A stretch of 64,000 bases of DNA, taken from Acetobacterium malicum subsp. dehalogenans DSM 11527. GTDB lineage: Bacteria; Bacillota; Clostridia; Eubacteriales; Eubacteriaceae. Position numbers and translations under genes: made by a program. The stretch covers positions 1-64,000 of the forward strand of contig NZ_AXAC01000004.1 of NCBI RefSeq assembly GCF_000472665.1, written 5' to 3'. Positions within the stretch are counted from its first letter, which is position 1; the number at the start of each line of letters is the position of its first letter. The notes beneath the pieces were generated by a model that did not search any database, was not told where the DNA came from, and worked only from the letters and a program-made list of their open reading frames with translations. Of this stretch, positions 55,547-64,000 are shown in pieces.

Positions 55547-55582
55547 AAAAATCACGGATTAGAAAATTAGCTAAAACGTCTT

Positions 55583-55660
55583 GCCTCCCTACGTTAGTAT
55601 TAACTAACAGGTTCAAAGGGTCAGGTTTTAACCTTCTCAACTATAATAAGTCCCCCCGCA
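55583..55660 (-). promoter_or_regulatory. TPP riboswitch (THI element)
   Basis: On the minus strand the conserved segments GTTGAGAAGG, ACCCTTTGAACCTG and ACGTAGGGAGGC occur in order, the signature of the TPP aptamer. It controls thiC. Confidence 0.95.
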
Positions 55661-55681
55661 AATGAGTATTCAATTGTCAGC

Positions 55682-58163: not shown

Positions 58164-58192
58164 AATATCGAAAAATAAGAGGAGGAAACGTG

Positions 58193-58651
58193 ATGACAGA
58201 GATAATTCAATTAGGGGCAATGGCTCCGGATTTTGCATTGCCGGATCAAAATGGCGAGATGATTACCCTGAGTCAATATCAAGGGAAAAAGGTGCTGCTG
58301 TCCTGGCATCCCCTGGCCTGGACATCAGTATGCACCGACCAGATGCGGTCTCTGGATCGGAATGCGGATCGCTTTGCACAAAAAAACACGGTGTTATTAG
58401 GCCTCAGTGTTGATCCCCAGCCCAGTAAATCGGTGTGGGCCCGGGCCCTGTCAATAAAACATTTCAAAATTTTATCAGATTTTGTGCCATTGGGTACGGT
58501 GGCGAGAGACTACGGCATTTTCAGTGAAGAACATGGCGCATCAAAAAGAGCCAATATCCTGATTAATGAAGCAGGGATGGTGATCTGGGTCAAGAAATAT
58601 GAAATTCACACCTTGCCGGATGTGGAAGAAGTGCTGGGAAAAATGAAATAG
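58193..58651 (+). CDS. Peroxiredoxin (AhpC/TSA family)
   Basis: A 152-residue thiol peroxidase. The peroxidatic Cys is in PLAWTSVCTDQM near residue 47, in the family PxxxTxxC context. No second conserved Cys is seen in the usual C-terminal place, so it may be of 1-Cys type or use an outside reductant. It lies in front of the carotenoid genes, separated by a terminator, so co-regulation is not shown. AGGAGGAAACGTG precedes the ATG; GTG 58190 is the alternative. Confidence 0.9.
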   Translation: MTEIIQLGAMAPDFALPDQNGEMITLSQYQGKKVLLSWHPLAWTSVCTDQMRSLDRNADRFAQKNTVLLGLSVDPQPSKSVWARALSIKHFKILSDFVPLGTVARDYGIFSEEHGASKRANILINEAGMVIWVKKYEIHTLPDVEEVLGKMK

Positions 58652-58730
58652 GGCAGCAGATTTTTTATTCAGAGCAACCGAAATACGCCGGCCCGGTCAA
58701 ATGTTCTGCAAATTTATCGGTAGTCTCGAT

Positions 58731-58755
58731 ACCCTGGGTAACCAGGGTGTTTTTT
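58731..58755 (+). terminator. Intrinsic terminator after the peroxiredoxin gene
   Basis: ACCCTGG-GTAA-CCAGGGT followed by GTTTTTT. Confidence 0.85.
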
Positions 58756-58810
58756 GAATCGTTTGGGGTATAAAAACAAACATACTTGAAATGAAGGGAT
58801 ATATAAAAGC

Positions 58811-60310
58811 ATGAGCAGAAAGAAAATCATCGTCATCGGGGCAGGGGTCAGCGGCCTAGCCAGTGCAGTACGATTATTAAATGAGGGCTTCGAGGTTGAG
58901 CTTTATGAGAAGAACCGTCAGGTCGGGGGGCGCATGGGTGTCATCAGCGGCAACGGCTTTACCTTTGATCTGGGTCCCACGATTCTGATGATGCCCCAGA
59001 TTTATGAAGAGGTTTTTAGCAATTGCGGCCGAAACCCGGCAGATTATCTCGAGATGGAGCGATTGGATCCTATCTATAAGGTGTATTTTGGCGATGGGTC
59101 CACCCACGAGGCATCGTCTGAGCTGAGCAGTCTGATTAAGACCTTGGAATCGGTTGGTGAAACAGAAACTCAGGGTTATCTGGCCTATCTGGCCGATGTC
59201 TATAAACGGTATCTGGTGGCCAAGGAACACTTTATTGATCGTTCGTTCCGAAAGGCCACCGATTTTTATAATCCGAAAACCCTGTTGGCAGGGCTGCGGT
59301 TACGAACCTTTGACAATGCCTTTGACTCGGTCGGCAAATTTGTCAAGGATGAAAAGCTCAAGGAACTGCTGAGTTTTCAGACCCTTTATATTGGTATCTC
59401 GCCCTTTAATGGGCCATCAATTTACACGATTATCCCCATGATCGAACTGACCTATGGGGTCTGGTTTTTGAAGGGCGGGATGCGGGCGATGGCCCTGGCT
59501 ATGGAGAAACTGTTTCTGGAAATGGGCGGCAAATTATTTCTTGATACAGCGGTGGAACGCATTAACATTGATGGAAAAATGGTTCGTGGTGTCACGGTTA
59601 ATGGAGAAGAGAAAACCGCAGATGGGGTCGTCTGTTCGGCGGATTTTCCCTATGCCATGAAAGCGTTGTTGCCCGATGATTTTAAACACAAAAAATATCA
59701 ACCGGCCAAGGTCGCTGAACTGGACTATTCCTGTTCGGCCTACATGCTCTACTTGGGTCTGGATAAACGGGATTTTCCCGGTTTGAATGTCCACAACCTG
59801 GTCTTTTCTAAAGATTTCAAGGGCAATCTGGACGATATTTTCGCCGGGCGTTTTCCGGCAGATCCATCCATTTATGTTTATGCTCCGGCACTGCTGGATG
59901 AAAGCCTGGCCCCCGCGGGGCAATTGGGCCTTTACGTATTAGTACCGGTGCCCAACTTAAAAGATGGATCCTTGCCCTGGGAAGATGAGGCGGCAATGGC
60001 CGGCTATCGCCGCCAGGCACTGGAAAAGATCAGCCAGATTCTGCCACTAAAAGATTTTGAACAGCACATTATTTTCGAAAAATCCTATAATCCCGTTGAT
60101 TTCAGGGACGACTTCAATGCTCTGTTCGGAGCTACCTTTGGTTTGCGCCCGACCTTGTTGCAGAGCAATTACTGGCGGCCCCAACCCAAGGCGATGGGCT
60201 ATCAAAATTTGTATTTTACCGGATCCAGCGCCCATCCCGGGGCCGGCGTTCCGATCGTGTTAACATCAGCCAAGATTACCGTAGCGGAAGTGATGAGGGA
60301 TTTCCAATGA
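58811..60310 (+). CDS. crtI: Carotenoid (phytoene or diapophytoene) desaturase
   Basis: A 499-residue FAD oxidoreductase of the CrtI/CrtN family that introduces conjugated double bonds into a C40 or C30 polyene. N-terminal dinucleotide fold KIIVIGAGVSGLASAVRLL and the substrate-side blocks GGRMGVISGNGFTFDLGPTI and YGVWFLKGGMRAMALAMEKL; the C-terminal FAD block FTGSSAHPGAGVPIV is complete. Whether it is C40 or C30 cannot be told from sequence here. Its stop overlaps the synthase start (ATGA at 60307-60310). Confidence 0.93.
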   Translation: MSRKKIIVIGAGVSGLASAVRLLNEGFEVELYEKNRQVGGRMGVISGNGFTFDLGPTILMMPQIYEEVFSNCGRNPADYLEMERLDPIYKVYFGDGSTHEASSELSSLIKTLESVGETETQGYLAYLADVYKRYLVAKEHFIDRSFRKATDFYNPKTLLAGLRLRTFDNAFDSVGKFVKDEKLKELLSFQTLYIGISPFNGPSIYTIIPMIELTYGVWFLKGGMRAMALAMEKLFLEMGGKLFLDTAVERINIDGKMVRGVTVNGEEKTADGVVCSADFPYAMKALLPDDFKHKKYQPAKVAELDYSCSAYMLYLGLDKRDFPGLNVHNLVFSKDFKGNLDDIFAGRFPADPSIYVYAPALLDESLAPAGQLGLYVLVPVPNLKDGSLPWEDEAAMAGYRRQALEKISQILPLKDFEQHIIFEKSYNPVDFRDDFNALFGATFGLRPTLLQSNYWRPQPKAMGYQNLYFTGSSAHPGAGVPIVLTSAKITVAEVMRDFQ

Positions 60311-61173
60311 TCACTGAAGCAATCCAAAAAGATTTAAACTGGTGCGAAACCCTGATTCAGAATAATTCTAGCAGTTTTTATCGGGCTTTCCGAAAATTAC
60401 CGCAAGAACAGGCCCAGGCAGTGTTTGCGATCTATGCCTTCTGCCGGATTGCCGATGATGCCATCGATGTTGATAACAACCCGGAAATGGTCAAAGAGAT
60501 GGTTGTCAAACTGGATGCTTTCAAAGCGGGAGAAACCCCAGATGAACCGATGTGGCGGGCGCTGCGATGGGCGTTTGACACCTTTCCCCTAAAAATTCGG
60601 CCGTTTCAGGAAATGCTGATCGGTCAGCTTCAGGATGTTGACTTTAAACAGCCGGAAAGCTTTAATCATTTATTGGACTATTGCTATCTGGTGGCTGGAA
60701 CGGTGGGCCTGATGCTTTGTCCGCTGTTGGCAAAACCGGTAACCATTGAAACCGAAAAATTATCGGTGGAACTGGGCATTGCCATGCAGCTTACCAATAT
60801 TTTACGAGATGTGGGCACGGACTATCGGCTTAATCGCATCTACCTGCCGGAGGATTTAATGATTGCCCTGGGGGTCAGTCCCGAGAATCTGGCGGGACCA
60901 GAGCCGACCCCGGAACTGATCAGACTGTGGGAGCATATTGCGGCTGAAGCTGAAAGCCGCTATAATAGAATTACAGCGAATCTGGATGTATTTGACAAAA
61001 ACGCTCGATTGCCGGTATTATTGGCACTGCTTTATTATAGTAAGATAATAAAACGTTGCCGGAAAGCCCGGTATCGGTTGTTGGATCGACGGATCTATGT
61101 TCCTAAATGGGAAAAGCTGATGCTCTTTATTACGGCGAACAGACAGCTGTTATTAACATCATTGTGGCGATAA
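60307..61173 (+). CDS. crtB: Phytoene/squalene synthase family protein
   Basis: A 288-residue head-to-head prenyl synthase that joins two GGPP (phytoene) or FPP (dehydrosqualene). Both Mg-binding aspartate motifs are present: RIADDAIDV near residue 53 and LRDVGTDYRLNRIYLP near 160. SSSFYRAFRKLP is the usual N-terminal motif. It overlaps the desaturase gene by 4 bp, so the two make the carotenoid core. No GGPP synthase gene is in the window. C30 (CrtM) or C40 (CrtB) not resolved. Confidence 0.93.
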   Translation: MITEAIQKDLNWCETLIQNNSSSFYRAFRKLPQEQAQAVFAIYAFCRIADDAIDVDNNPEMVKEMVVKLDAFKAGETPDEPMWRALRWAFDTFPLKIRPFQEMLIGQLQDVDFKQPESFNHLLDYCYLVAGTVGLMLCPLLAKPVTIETEKLSVELGIAMQLTNILRDVGTDYRLNRIYLPEDLMIALGVSPENLAGPEPTPELIRLWEHIAAEAESRYNRITANLDVFDKNARLPVLLALLYYSKIIKRCRKARYRLLDRRIYVPKWEKLMLFITANRQLLLTSLWR

Positions 61174-61196
61174 GCGGCGGAGAATGGAGGCATCTG

Positions 61197-61868
61197 ATGG
61201 AAAACATCGGGACTTATCATAATTTACTGGGAATAATTGTTTCGTTTATTTATGTATTCGGCGTTATTTTTTTCGCCAGGTTTTTAGAGCGCTTCGGCAA
61301 AGAAACCAGCCGTAAGGCAGTCCACATTCTGGTGTGCAACTGGTGGCTGCTGGCGATGGTCTTTTTTGACAGCCCCATTTGGGCTGCTGTGGTACCAGCC
61401 TGTTTTGTCTTTTTGAATTATCTGTCATACCGGTTTCAGCTTTTTTCATCGATGGAACGCGGGGCCGGAAAAGGCGATCTGGGCACCGTTTATTATGCCA
61501 TTTCGCTGCTGGTGTTAGCGCTGATTAGCTTTGGACCGCTGGAGAACCCGGTGGTTGGCGGGGTGGGGATTATGATTATGGGATATGGCGATGGTTTAGC
61601 AGCAGTTGTAGGAACACGGTGGCCGAAGCAACCATATAAACTATTGGGTTCAGAAAAAACCCTGTCCGGCAGTCTTACCATGCTGGTGGCGAGCTTCCTG
61701 GTGACCCTGATTTTACTGGCGGCCACCGGCTCGGCCGAGGTACTGATTCCGGCGATAACCCTGGCGGTGCTGGCAACTGCGCTTGAAGCCATAACGCCCC
61801 TTGGGCTGGACAATCTAACCGTGCCCCTGGTCAGTGCCGGGGCCTATTATTTTATATTTGTCATATAG
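61197..61868 (+). CDS. Phytol/dolichol kinase family membrane protein (VTE5-like)
   Basis: A 223-residue integral membrane protein with about seven hydrophobic segments. The block RKAVHILVCNWW and the later GYGDGLAAVVGTRWPKQPYKLLGSEKTLSGSL are typical of the SEC59/VTE5 prenol-kinase family, which phosphorylates long prenols with a nucleotide. In plants VTE5 phosphorylates phytol. Here the substrate could be a prenol released from an isoprenoid lipid. GGAGG precedes the ATG at 61197. It is cotranscribed with the carotenoid genes. Confidence 0.85.
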   Translation: MENIGTYHNLLGIIVSFIYVFGVIFFARFLERFGKETSRKAVHILVCNWWLLAMVFFDSPIWAAVVPACFVFLNYLSYRFQLFSSMERGAGKGDLGTVYYAISLLVLALISFGPLENPVVGGVGIMIMGYGDGLAAVVGTRWPKQPYKLLGSEKTLSGSLTMLVASFLVTLILLAATGSAEVLIPAITLAVLATALEAITPLGLDNLTVPLVSAGAYYFIFVI

Positions 61869-61878
61869 GAGAAGCAGA

Positions 61879-62733
61879 ATGGAAAATTTAATCGACTATA
61901 GTGTAGCTGCTCAAACCGGAACGATACTGGAACATGTGGTATACATTTGCCTGTCTTTGCTCGGGGCAACTTTTGCATACCGTCGAAAATCATTAACCTT
62001 TTCGGCCGCCCTGGGAGCCTTTTTTTTGGGAACTGCCTTATATCTGGCCGGAGGGCCCTTATTCTTTGTTTTACTGATGGTCTTCTTTTTAAGCTCGACC
62101 TTTTTATCCCATTTCAAAGCCAGCATTAAAGATCCGGTTGAGGCCAGAATTCACGCCAAATCGGGTCCCCGGGATATTGTCCAGGTTGGTGCTAATGGGG
62201 GTGCCGCTCTGATTATGGCAGTGCCTTTTGCCATATCTCAGAATCCGGCCTATTTGGTGGCGGTGGCAGCATCATTTGCGGCTTGCAACGCTGATACTTG
62301 GGCTTCGGAAATCGGCATTCTCAGCCGCAAGGCACCGGTTTCGCTGATCACCTTTAAACCGGTCAGTCCCGGGCTTTCCGGCGGGGTCAGTCCGCTGGGG
62401 TTGATGGCTTCGCTGGGCGGTTCGGTGGTGGTGGCATTGACCTATGGTTTGTATCAGCTAGCCGCCGGAAACAGCGGTGAGCTGTTATGGATGCAAATTG
62501 GTATCATTACTTTAGGTGGCGTGTTGGGGTCAATTCTGGACAGCTTAATGGGTGCGGCTATCCAGGCCAAGTATATCAGCCATGAAACCGGCGAGTTGAC
62601 CGAGAAGCCGGACCACAATAATAAACCCAACCAGTTATATAGCGGGATAACCTTTGTGAACAATGATTTTGTTAATTTTGCCAGTTCGTTGTTGGCCGCC
62701 ATACTGGTTCTGGTTTTTGTTGAGCTCCAATAA
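61879..62733 (+). CDS. DUF92 prenyl-phosphate kinase-like membrane protein (VTE6-like)
   Basis: A 284-residue membrane protein with about seven helices. Family blocks: GPRDIVQVGANGG, CNADTWASEIGILSRK, and GGVSPLGLMASLGGS, which is the signature of DUF92/TMEM19. Plant VTE6 of this family phosphorylates phytyl phosphate to the diphosphate, following VTE5. The two kinase homologues are therefore adjacent in pathway order, 10 bp apart, pointing to a prenol salvage route to prenyl diphosphate. AGGAGAAGCAGA precedes the ATG. Confidence 0.88.
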   Translation: MENLIDYSVAAQTGTILEHVVYICLSLLGATFAYRRKSLTFSAALGAFFLGTALYLAGGPLFFVLLMVFFLSSTFLSHFKASIKDPVEARIHAKSGPRDIVQVGANGGAALIMAVPFAISQNPAYLVAVAASFAACNADTWASEIGILSRKAPVSLITFKPVSPGLSGGVSPLGLMASLGGSVVVALTYGLYQLAAGNSGELLWMQIGIITLGGVLGSILDSLMGAAIQAKYISHETGELTEKPDHNNKPNQLYSGITFVNNDFVNFASSLLAAILVLVFVELQ

Positions 62734-62789
62734 AACAATGGACATTTGGTAAAGAACCACTGTTTCCACGACATGAAAGGAAAAAGACG

Positions 62790-63767
62790 ATGATCAAGCA
62801 GGCATATTTTCAAGGAAAAAACAAAAAGCGGCGGTATTTTGAAGGCTGGTATTTTAAGTGTATCAGTGTCGATCGAAAACACGCCATTGCTATTATTCCG
62901 GGAATGGCCATTGATCCCCAGGGGAAAAAGCATGCCTTTATTCAAGTAATCAATGCCGTCAACGGAAAAACCTGGTATCATCATTTTCCTTACTCCGAGT
63001 TTAATGCCCGATCAGATGAGTTTGATGTAGAAATTGAAAACAATAGCTTTAATGCCCAGGGGTTATCATTAAACGTGGATACCGCTGAAGGGTGTATCAA
63101 AGGACGACTGACCTTTAATACGATTCATCCCTTCCCCACTGGTCCCGGGCATCCCGGAATTATGGGACCTTTCGGTTTGCTGCCGTTTATGGAATGCTAT
63201 CACGCCATCATTCATCTGTACCATGAAATAAAGGGTGATATTGAGCTGGATGGGGAAATTCTTGATTTTAATGGTGGTGTCGGTTATATCGAAAAGGACT
63301 ATGGCCGGTCATTTCCAAAAACCTATCTCTGGCTTCAGGCCAGCCATTTTGAAACGAGAAATGCTTCTTTTGTCTTTTCCCGGGCAAATATTCCCTTTTT
63401 AGGAATAGAATTTCCCGGTTTTTTTGCCTACTTCACTGATTTTAACGGGATCACCCAGCGTTTTGCCACCTACAATTTTTCCCGGCTAAAAAAATGGGAA
63501 GTTGATACTGAGAAGGGGACCTGTGCCGGGGAGCTGGAAGGTCCAAACGGGGCACTGACTTTTACTGCCCAGATGGCTAGTGGCGGACGGCTTCGGGCGC
63601 CGGTTGATGGACTAATGGATCGGGAAATTGTGGAGAGTATCACCGCCAAAGTGTGGGTGCGTTTAACAAACAATCACGGGGATGTTATATTTGAAAGCGC
63701 CAGTAGCGAAGCCGGGATGGAAATATGTTTAGACGAAGGGGTTGCATCGAACCAAGAAAGCGAATAA
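62790..63767 (+). CDS. Tocopherol cyclase (VTE1)-like lipocalin-fold protein
   Basis: A 325-residue protein of the tocopherol-cyclase family: RRYFEGWYFKCISVD at the N-terminus, then HPGIMGPFG, GGVGYIEKDYGRSFPKTY and the lipocalin-type strands. No signal peptide. Plant VTE1 closes the chromanol ring of tocopherols; the fold is related to the carotenoid hydratase CrtC, so a reaction on a carotenoid double bond is also possible. An anaerobe without homogentisate chemistry would not make true tocopherol. AAAGGAAAAAGACG precedes the ATG; it follows the VTE6-like gene by 56 bp. Confidence 0.85.
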   Translation: MIKQAYFQGKNKKRRYFEGWYFKCISVDRKHAIAIIPGMAIDPQGKKHAFIQVINAVNGKTWYHHFPYSEFNARSDEFDVEIENNSFNAQGLSLNVDTAEGCIKGRLTFNTIHPFPTGPGHPGIMGPFGLLPFMECYHAIIHLYHEIKGDIELDGEILDFNGGVGYIEKDYGRSFPKTYLWLQASHFETRNASFVFSRANIPFLGIEFPGFFAYFTDFNGITQRFATYNFSRLKKWEVDTEKGTCAGELEGPNGALTFTAQMASGGRLRAPVDGLMDREIVESITAKVWVRLTNNHGDVIFESASSEAGMEICLDEGVASNQESE

Positions 63768-63847: not shown

Positions 63848-63868
63848 AGTTCAAAATTAAATAATCGT

Positions 63869-64000
63869 TTTCAGGTGCCCCTTGGGGAGAATAGGAAAAT
63901 AAGTGAGAAGCTTATACGGGCCCGCCGCTGTAAATTGGGAATTTCTGTCAGTATGCCACTGTTTAATAAATGGGAAGGCGACAGAGGTGATGATCATGAG
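63869..64000 (+). promoter_or_regulatory. Cobalamin riboswitch, cut by the window end
   Basis: The conserved segments appear in order: AGGTGCCC, GAATAGGAAAATA, GAGAAGCTTATACGGGCCCGCCGCTGTAA, GCCACTG and GGGAAGGCGACAG. This matches the B12 aptamer including the B12-box-like GCCACTG region. The controlled gene is beyond 64000, on the plus strand, likely for cobalamin synthesis, transport or a B12-independent isoenzyme. Confidence 0.92.

What the first reader, a model, noticed from the sequence alone, without database searches (positions are those of the whole stretch)
58811..63767. Carotenoid synthesis genes joined to VTE5-, VTE6- and VTE1-like genes in an anaerobe
Seen: desaturase and phytoene/squalene synthase overlapping by 4 bp, then a prenol kinase homologue, a DUF92 prenyl-phosphate kinase homologue and a tocopherol-cyclase homologue, spaced 10-56 bp on one strand. 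Known: VTE5, VTE6 and VTE1 act in plant tocopherol synthesis, and VTE1 shares its lipocalin-like fold with carotenoid hydratase CrtC. Inference: the operon makes or recycles a prenyl lipid or cyclised or hydrated carotenoid, perhaps an antioxidant; the upstream peroxiredoxin fits oxygen defence. No prenyltransferase of the VTE2 type is seen.
Basis: partly seen in the sequence, partly recalled or inferred. Interest (0 to 1): 0.78.

Follow-up and report, generated by a model that had tools for sequence, protein, structure and literature searches.

The report
Carotenoid operon with prenol-recycling kinases
An oxygen-hating bacterium carries genes for a short-chain carotenoid pigment in one operon with two enzymes that probably recycle farnesol into the pigment's building block, plus a plant-vitamin-E-cyclase look-alike whose job seems to be separate from the pigment.

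Summary
The five genes are real, with the spacing described; the genus is Acetobacterium. The synthase looks C30-type (CrtM; Phe28 and Phe229), so the route is farnesyl-PP to 4,4'-diaponeurosporene-type pigment, a product shown in print for Eubacterium limosum CrtM/CrtN. The new part is the coupling. CrtB/CrtM was found in 5 of 391 sampled genomes of the class, and all 5 have CrtN, CrtM, a VTE5-like and a VTE6-like gene in one cluster. Predicted VTE5-VTE6 fusions exist, one 33 bp behind crtM. Eight genomes of other classes with two or three CrtN homologues show no kinase gene within the 15 kb read. Best reading: two-kinase prenol salvage (farnesol to farnesyl-P to farnesyl-PP) feeding CrtM. 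The VTE1-like protein is not core: found in 0 of 11 VTE5-bearing genomes outside the genus, and under purifying selection in Acetobacterium genomes without CrtM. Yet it sits beside the same four genes in an Acholeplasmataceae genome. Its predicted fold is the AttH/kievitone-hydratase/Diels-Alderase double barrel with a tocopherol-cyclase-like motif; prenyl hydration or cyclisation is plausible, untested. Tocopherol synthesis is unlikely: the only UbiA gene is a naphthoate prenyltransferase. Verdict: new variant of a known kind.

The parts
58811..60310 (+). CrtN/CrtI-type carotenoid desaturase (499 aa)
   Evidence: TIGR02734 439.7 bits, over cut-off; the only one of 19 matches in the genome over that cut-off
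60307..61173 (+). CrtM-type (C30) diapophytoene synthase (288 aa)
   Evidence: PF00494; best PDB relative 5iys 4.5e-68 (deposited as 'Phytoene synthase', used as a CrtM structure in PMC13304436), then CrtM and dehydrosqualene synthases; F28 and F229 at the F26/F233 positions
60388..60390 (+). codon of Phe28 (S. aureus CrtM F26 equivalent)
   Evidence: F in the 10 rows taken as CrtM-type, S in 3 rows taken as C40 CrtB
61197..61868 (+). VTE5/FOLK-like prenol kinase homologue
   Evidence: RKxxH clamp, 7-8 hydrophobic segments by a crude count, fused to the VTE6-like domain elsewhere
61311..61325 (+). RKAVH charged clamp of the VTE5-like protein
   Evidence: Arg-Lys-His clamp described for PfPolK in PMC10849223 (passages)
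61879..62733 (+). VTE6-like (DUF92) prenyl-phosphate kinase homologue
   Evidence: PF01940 230.2 bits
62790..63767 (+). VTE1-like (PF14249) AttH-fold double beta-barrel protein
   Evidence: Pfam 58.3 bits; AF2 model mean pLDDT 92.8; fold matches
63282..63305 (+). GYIEKDYG motif (Y166, E168) of the VTE1-like protein
   Evidence: G165 Y166 E168 K169 D170 G172 invariant in 64 rows; YxEKNWG in tocopherol cyclases (PMC4963081, passages)
58728..58751 (+). terminator-like hairpin between the peroxiredoxin gene and crtN
   Evidence: 10-pair stem with T tail; a like sequence is seen by eye in 8 of 9 aligned leaders of the genus, not in G020
58190..58651 (+). peroxiredoxin (AhpC/TSA), neighbour rather than member
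   Evidence: PF00578; hairpin behind it
63856..64000 (+). cobalamin riboswitch that opens the next unit (runs past the window end)
   Evidence: RF00174 107.9 bits at L002 8857-9032

Best explanation
A C30 carotenoid operon with a built-in precursor-salvage module. Inferred route: the VTE5-like membrane kinase phosphorylates farnesol (or a like prenol) to farnesyl-P, the VTE6-like kinase makes farnesyl-PP, CrtM couples two to 15-cis-4,4'-diapophytoene, and CrtN desaturates it, probably to 4,4'-diaponeurosporene. Further inference: salvage supplies FPP when the oxygen-sensitive Fe-S enzymes of the MEP pathway (IspG/IspH; recalled knowledge, MEP genes of this genome not checked) fail on exposure to air, which is when the pigment is useful. 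The VTE1-like AttH-fold protein is an accessory that acts by acid catalysis on a prenyl double bond and has its main job outside the carotenoid pathway. Shown here by computation: gene content, recurrence, predicted fusions, C30-type residues, predicted fold, selection in genomes without crt. Not shown: any activity, co-transcription, product.
For: CrtM/CrtN type. E. limosum crtM/crtN make 4,4'-diaponeurosporene in E. [quoted passage not shown] abstract, passages, sections 3.2 and 4). Coupling: CrtB at E<=1e-10 in 5 of 391 sampled genomes of the class, all 5 with CrtI, VTE5-like and VTE6-like in one cluster; the same four genes in Acholeplasmataceae UBA6150 (L120). Sequential action: VTE5-VTE6 fusion frames in L144, L146 and L219, the last 33 bp behind crtB. 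Isoprenoid link: a VTE5-like gene 18 bp from dxs in L172. Contrast: 8 genomes of other classes with 2-3 CrtI homologues have neither kinase in the 15-kb stretches read. The genome has one FPP-synthase-type gene over that model's cut-off. VTE1 as accessory.
Against: G670 has a CrtB of this kind with a divergent CrtI but no kinase gene on its 5,168-bp contig. Two Acetobacterium genomes (G026, G029) have crtN-crtM-VTE6 without VTE5, and five have VTE6 without CrtB and VTE5, so the kinases are not strictly tied to each other or to crt. G045 of genus g3 has none of them. VTE5-like has no curated profile match and its AF2 model failed (pLDDT 52). VTE6-like scores 98.7 bits against the TIGR00297 cut-off of 205.85, and the synthase's best NCBIfam models are HpnD (181.6, cut-off 278.6) and CrtB models, all below cut-off. 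One of the three fusions (L146) lacks the RKxxH clamp. Prenol chain length was not tested. E. limosum made no carotenoid under strict anaerobiosis (PMC11611032). The CrtB tree does not group the kinase-linked CrtM proteins.
Confidence: 0.6

Rival explanations
1. All five genes form one pathway in which the VTE1-like protein hydrates or cyclises the acyclic psi-ends of the C30 carotene without oxygen, as CrtC does for C40 carotenes, giving an anaerobically made xanthophyll.
For: VTE1-like is 56 bp behind VTE6 in the window and next to the same four genes in L120 at 39.5% identity, so not a recent transfer. Fold matches include kievitone hydratase, a prenyl hydratase. Y166/E168 resemble Y266/D268 of CrtC by motif (PMC4717167, abstract and passages).
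Against: VTE1 was found in 0 of 11 VTE5-bearing genomes outside the genus, 7 of which have crt (no positive genome in that run). It is present in 8 of 19 Acetobacterium genomes without any CrtB match, with dN/dS 0.11 for a pair that also lacks VTE6. CrtC profile comparison is not significant (prob 1.4%). 74 of the 75 non-Acetobacterium loci show no crt cluster on the DNA held, though some are short.
Confidence: 0.17
2. The two kinases serve another prenyl lipid (long-chain polyprenol or geranylgeranyl/phytyl groups) and only share the operon with crtMN.
For: VTE6 persists in five genomes without CrtB and VTE5, with dN/dS 0.05-0.13 among G027, G028 and G037. VTE5-like and VTE6-like occur together with no crt match in L173 and L174.
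Against: VTE5-like occurs in the genus only where a CrtB match is present, intact or broken, and the crt link recurs in distant families.
Confidence: 0.15
3. A chromanol pathway: the VTE1-like protein cyclises a (demethyl)menaquinol-type lipid to an antioxidant chromanol, as plant VTE1 does with plastoquinol.
For: The genome has a naphthoate prenyltransferase, a long-chain prenyl-PP synthase and an NDH-2-like gene together. YxEK motif shared with tocopherol cyclases.
Against: No homogentisate prenyltransferase; the quinone-type genes are on another contig; the neighbours of VTE1-like genes elsewhere show no quinone pattern that I recognised. Quinone genes were not sought in other carriers.
Confidence: 0.08
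4. A decaying relic: the genes have no use and are being lost.
For: CrtB is missing or broken in 13 of 19 Acetobacterium genomes. E. limosum makes no carotenoid anaerobically and its authors suggest 'no immediate self-utility' (PMC11611032).
Against: Conserved order and tight spacing over distant families; full-length crtN and crtM matches in 6 of 19 Acetobacterium genomes.
Confidence: 0.08

Closest known systems
Eubacterium limosum crtM/crtN (PMC11611032)
   Different: The paper's main text holds 'kinase' 0 and 'operon' 0 times; no VTE1-like match in the four g3 genomes searched
Staphylococcus crtOPQMN and other Bacilli crtMN clusters (names recalled)
   Same: CrtM and CrtN making C30 carotenoids
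   Different: Further CrtN-type genes; no VTE5/VTE6 annotated in the S. xylosus plasmid stretch and none found in the 8 multi-CrtI stretches
Plant/cyanobacterial prenol salvage: VTE5 or FOLK plus VTE6
   Same: A DUF92 protein and an RKxxH membrane protein, here adjacent or fused
   Different: Bacterial, beside CrtM rather than tocopherol genes; substrate untested
Tocopherol cyclase VTE1 and bacterial tocopherol-cyclase-like proteins (PMC4963081)
   Same: PF14249 match; YIEKDYG against YxEKNWG; FP...WxQ stretch downstream
   Different: No VTE2 partner; function of the bacterial group unknown
AttH-fold enzymes (2ich, kievitone hydratase 7a0t, Fsa2/CghA/Phm7, 25-phosphosteroid lyase 9fzn)
   Same: Double beta-barrel fold over nearly the whole model, VIA Z 18.5-22.4
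   Different: 8-13% identity in those alignments; no significant profile match to CrtC

Membership tests
CrtM (C30 synthase) | PF00494 domain | tested here: met
   226.5 bits, cut-off 26
CrtM (C30 synthase) | Phe at F26 and F233 positions that restrict C20 substrates | tested here: met
   F28 and F229; rows taken as C40 have S and L; determinants per PMC13304436 (passages)
CrtM (C30 synthase) | makes diapophytoene from FPP | not testable with these tools
   shown for E. limosum in PMC11611032, not for this protein
CrtI/CrtN desaturase | TIGR02734 over cut-off | tested here: met
   439.7 against 238.1 bits
VTE5/FOLK prenol kinase | RKxxH clamp and about 8 membrane helices | tested here: met
   clamp in 34 of 35 rows, 5 of them duplicates (29 of 30 distinct); window protein 7-8 segments by a crude hydropathy count
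VTE5/FOLK prenol kinase | match to a curated profile | tested here: inconclusive
   none at E<=1 in Pfam or E<=0.01 in NCBIfam; whether these libraries hold a VTE5 model was not checked
VTE5/FOLK prenol kinase | CTP-dependent prenol phosphorylation | not testable with these tools
   assay needed
VTE6 / DUF92 | PF01940 over cut-off | tested here: met
   230.2 against 27.5 bits
VTE6 / DUF92 | prenyl-phosphate kinase activity | not testable with these tools
   assay needed
Tocopherol cyclase (VTE1) | PF14249 over cut-off | tested here: met
   58.3 against 26.6 bits, C-terminal half of the profile only
Tocopherol cyclase (VTE1) | YxEKNWG motif | tested here: inconclusive
   YIEKDYG, 4 of the 6 fixed positions identical
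Tocopherol cyclase (VTE1) | homogentisate prenyltransferase (VTE2) in the genome | tested here: not met
   one UbiA match, a DHNA polyprenyltransferase
CrtC carotenoid 1,2-hydratase | sequence profile match | tested here: not met
   hhalign prob 1.4% against 7 CrtC proteins
AttH fold superfamily | double beta-barrel fold | tested here: met
   Foldseek 2ich 8.9e-9, 7a0t 1.5e-8; VIA Z 18.5-22.4 over 265-288 residues

The most novel reading that the evidence does not exclude
Strict anaerobes keep an oxygen-emergency pigment system: farnesol salvage by VTE5/VTE6-type kinases bypasses the oxygen-poisoned MEP pathway and feeds CrtM/CrtN exactly when air enters, and in Acetobacterium a VTE1/AttH-fold enzyme then hydrates or cyclises the prenyl ends without oxygen chemistry, giving a C30 xanthophyll or chromanol not yet described.
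Probability: 0.15. Interest if true: 0.78.

Novelty: new variant of a known kind. Interest (0 to 1): 0.5.

Why it matters
[quoted passage not shown] PMC10849223 (passages) later adds a Plasmodium prenol kinase. This operon and its fusions name a candidate bacterial gene pair with a coloured read-out. It also bears on why strict anaerobes keep carotenoid genes that make nothing under strict anaerobiosis (PMC11611032), and it gives the orphan bacterial tocopherol-cyclase-like family (PMC4963081) a confident predicted fold and a genus where its role can be separated from carotenoids.

Tried and rejected
Tocopherol/chromanol synthesis by a full VTE route: rejected for lack of VTE2. CrtC membership of the VTE1-like protein: profile comparison not significant, and an earlier hhalign run against a single CrtC also failed. 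Sequence search of the PDB with the VTE1-like protein (two matches at E 1.6-1.7, taken as chance) or its 64-row profile (none) gave no relative, so only the fold search links it. The AF2 model of VTE5-like from 3 rows had pLDDT 52 and was not used. VTE1 partners elsewhere: no family stood next to it in many of the 80 loci; the commonest, ABC-transporter- and response-regulator-like ORFs (recognised by eye), occur within three genes in 10 and 8 loci. Promoter scan: 10 hits against 9.6 expected, no use; 10 terminator-like hits against 7.3 expected, so only the strong 58728 hairpin is used, and a weaker one inside the end of VTE5 (61825) is treated as chance. Plasmid records: no VTE5-like match at E<=0.01. 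Pfam scans of 8 remoter VTE5-like frames gave no significant family.

Rows dropped or not looked at: in the phylum survey G682 (E 4e-11) was not fetched; G743 (CrtB match with a stop) and G462 (weak CrtB) had no kinase gene in the stretch and count as misses. In one search eight of 80 loci held another gene: four are Acetobacterium clusters (L058, L060-L062), one is L120, and three (L059, L067, L068) are only a distant CrtI paralogue, a peroxiredoxin and a short Rossmann match. One search had no positive genome in the same run. The class and phylum surveys are samples drawn from larger groups, searched at E<=1e-10. The structure alignment A5 used 64 rows: the window protein and 63 of the 79 locus proteins listed. 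CrtN was not searched over the whole genomes of relatives, only in the stretches fetched.

Literature: 10 searches. Absence of the kinase-crt link in print rests on (30 papers, 20 listed; 90 papers, 20 listed; 15 papers, 12 listed; 32 papers, 10 listed; 0 papers; 1 paper, on Rhodobacter, seen in the listing only), and on PMC11611032 as seen; supplements and subscription papers were not seen.
Full report
OBSERVATION. The five genes are there as described. The overlap of the first two is 4 bp, and the later gaps are 23, 10 and 56 bp. Pfam and NCBIfam support the desaturase, synthase, DUF92 and tocopherol-cyclase assignments. The VTE5-like protein matches no curated model, but it holds the Arg-Lys-x-x-His clamp that PMC10849223 describes for a CTP-dependent prenol kinase (passages). 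That clamp is present in 34 of 35 homologous rows, five of which are duplicates, so 29 of 30 distinct.

ORGANISM. The window lies in a 4.05-Mb genome. The species was not determined.

C30, NOT C40. The closest solved relative of the synthase is 5iys, deposited as 'Phytoene synthase' but treated as a CrtM structure in PMC13304436 (passages); CrtM and dehydrosqualene synthases follow. At the two size determinants named by that paper, F26 and F233 of S. aureus CrtM, the window protein has F28 and F229. Three rows taken as C40-type (Sulfitobacter by annotation, Thermus and Deinococcus from recall) have S and L; the 10 rows taken as CrtM-type all have F at the first position and 8 of 10 at the second (Y in L120, I in the E. 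faecium row). NCBIfam gives no CrtM call: the best models, HpnD and CrtB types, all stay below their cut-offs. The genome has two polyprenyl synthase matches: one over the FPP-synthase cut-off, which also scores 330.9 against the CrtE model (cut-off 460), and one long-chain type. PMC11611032 (abstract, passages, sections 3.2 and 4) shows that the E. limosum homologues make 4,4'-diaponeurosporene in E. coli, that E. limosum makes none under strict anaerobiosis, and that its crtE homologue does not support C40 synthesis.

RECURRENCE. Within the 19 Acetobacterium genomes: 4 have crtN-crtM-VTE5-VTE6-VTE1; 2 lack only VTE5; 1 (G024) has VTE5-VTE6-VTE1, a broken crtM and no crtN in the stretch read; 5 have VTE6-VTE1 behind the peroxiredoxin gene with no CrtB and VTE5 match in the genome; 3 have VTE1 without VTE6; 4 have none of CrtB, VTE5, VTE6, VTE1. 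Some of these genomes are 81-87% complete. In genus g3, 4 of 5 genomes have CrtB, VTE5 and VTE6 side by side; in the two stretches printed, crtN-crtM-VTE5 overlap by 4 bp each and VTE6 follows after 10 bp; VTE1 was not found in these four. Over the class, CrtB was found in 5 of 391 sampled genomes; all 5 have CrtI, VTE5-like and VTE6-like in one cluster, with CrtI divergent in two and split over two frames in G398. Over the phylum, 15 of 398 sampled genomes gave a CrtB match. Three have the kinases: the window genome and G128 (both also in the class sample), and G712, where one 486-aa VTE5-VTE6 fusion frame starts 33 bp behind crtB. Eleven do not show them in the stretches read: eight with two or three CrtI homologues, G670 on a short contig, G743 and G462. 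G682 was not examined. Outside these samples, the Acholeplasmataceae genome UBA6150 (L120) has the four genes and, divergently beside them, a VTE1-like gene of 39.5% identity.

WHAT THE KINASES DO. VTE5-VTE6 fusion frames in L144, L146 and L219 argue for consecutive steps; L146 lacks the RKxxH clamp. In L172 a VTE5-like gene lies 18 bp from dxs. Two-step prenol salvage by a prenol kinase and a prenyl-phosphate kinase is the known role of VTE5 or FOLK plus VTE6 (PMC9782597, PMC10849223; passages). Beside a C30 synthase the likely substrate is farnesol. The link to oxygen damage of IspG/IspH is my inference from recalled knowledge; the MEP genes of this genome were not checked.

VTE1-LIKE PROTEIN. 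The AF2 model from 64 sequences has mean pLDDT 92.8. Its fold is the AttH-type double barrel: Foldseek 2ich 8.9e-9, kievitone hydratase 1.5e-8, Fsa2 and CghA near 1.5e-8; VIA Z 22.4 to 18.5, the latter including 25-phosphosteroid lyase. G165, Y166, E168, K169, D170 and G172 are invariant in 64 rows, close to the YxEKNWG motif that PMC4963081 (passages) proposes as catalytic in tocopherol cyclases and finds more or less preserved in bacterial proteins of unknown function. Seven CrtC proteins have an invariant H-x-W ... Y-x-D with the spacing of the H239/W241/Y266/D268 set of PMC4717167. The equivalence of Y166/E168 to Y266/D268 is by motif only, since the profile comparison failed. Acid protonation of a prenyl double bond is therefore a plausible but unshown chemistry. 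A looser lead: 25-phosphosteroid lyase works behind a kinase in oxygen-free sterol breakdown (PMC11061730, PMC8449060; passages), and here an AttH-fold protein stands behind a kinase homologue; nothing tests this.

SEPARATE FROM CAROTENOIDS. None of 11 VTE5-bearing genomes outside the genus, 7 of them with crt, gave a VTE1 match. In Acetobacterium, VTE1 dN/dS is 0.11 between G023 and G033, which lack CrtB and VTE6. VTE6 dN/dS is 0.05-0.13 among G027, G028 and G037, which lack CrtB and VTE5. In G032 the gap before VTE6 keeps the crt leader and what looks like the last codons of crtM; in G021 the same hairpin and leader run straight into VTE6; in G027, G028 and G037 VTE6 starts 66-67 bp behind the end of the peroxiredoxin match. 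So the crt genes were probably lost more than once, and VTE6 and VTE1 stayed under selection.

BOUNDARIES. A terminator-like hairpin at 58728-58751 parts the peroxiredoxin from crtN. A cobalamin riboswitch at window 63856 onward opens the next unit. Co-transcription of the five genes was not shown.

VERDICT. Known parts in a combination that my searches did not find in print: a C30 carotenoid operon with prenol-salvage kinases, recurrent in several lineages, with an accessory AttH-fold protein in one genus. New variant of a known kind; interest 0.5.

Noticed in passing
window 63856-64000 (L002 8857-9032): Cobalamin riboswitch (107.9 bits) downstream of the VTE1-like gene, before an alcohol-dehydrogenase-like gene and a glycosyltransferase-3 family gene.
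   Followed up: partly
window 55568-55667, - strand (L002 569-668): TPP riboswitch (65 bits), before a - strand gene that looks like thiC by eye.
   Followed up: no
G000:C46, L175: UbiA-type DHNA polyprenyltransferase, long-chain prenyl-PP synthase and an NDH-2-like protein with a weak DoxX match side by side, resembling a demethylmenaquinone/extracellular electron transfer locus (recalled).
   Followed up: partly
L029 and window 61879-63767: VTE6 of G000 and G032 differ by dS 0.17 but their VTE1 by dS 0.79, which suggests recombination inside the locus.
   Followed up: no
L170 8606-10203: Two ORFs that look like an IS3-type transposase by eye lie between the divergent CrtI and CrtB of G224, at a place where G128 has none.
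   Followed up: no
L044 6502-8037, L048 1197-2567: A DAO-Rieske FAD oxidoreductase stands next to a distant VTE1-like gene in two families of the order.
   Followed up: partly
L219, L220 (G712): One genome with two SQS_PSY-type genes on different contigs, one beside the VTE5-VTE6 fusion and no CrtI match on that contig.
   Followed up: partly
window 58752-58810 and relatives: A GGGTAT block behind the hairpin is exact in 6 of 9 aligned leaders of the genus and resembles a sigma-B type -10 element (recalled motif).
   Followed up: no
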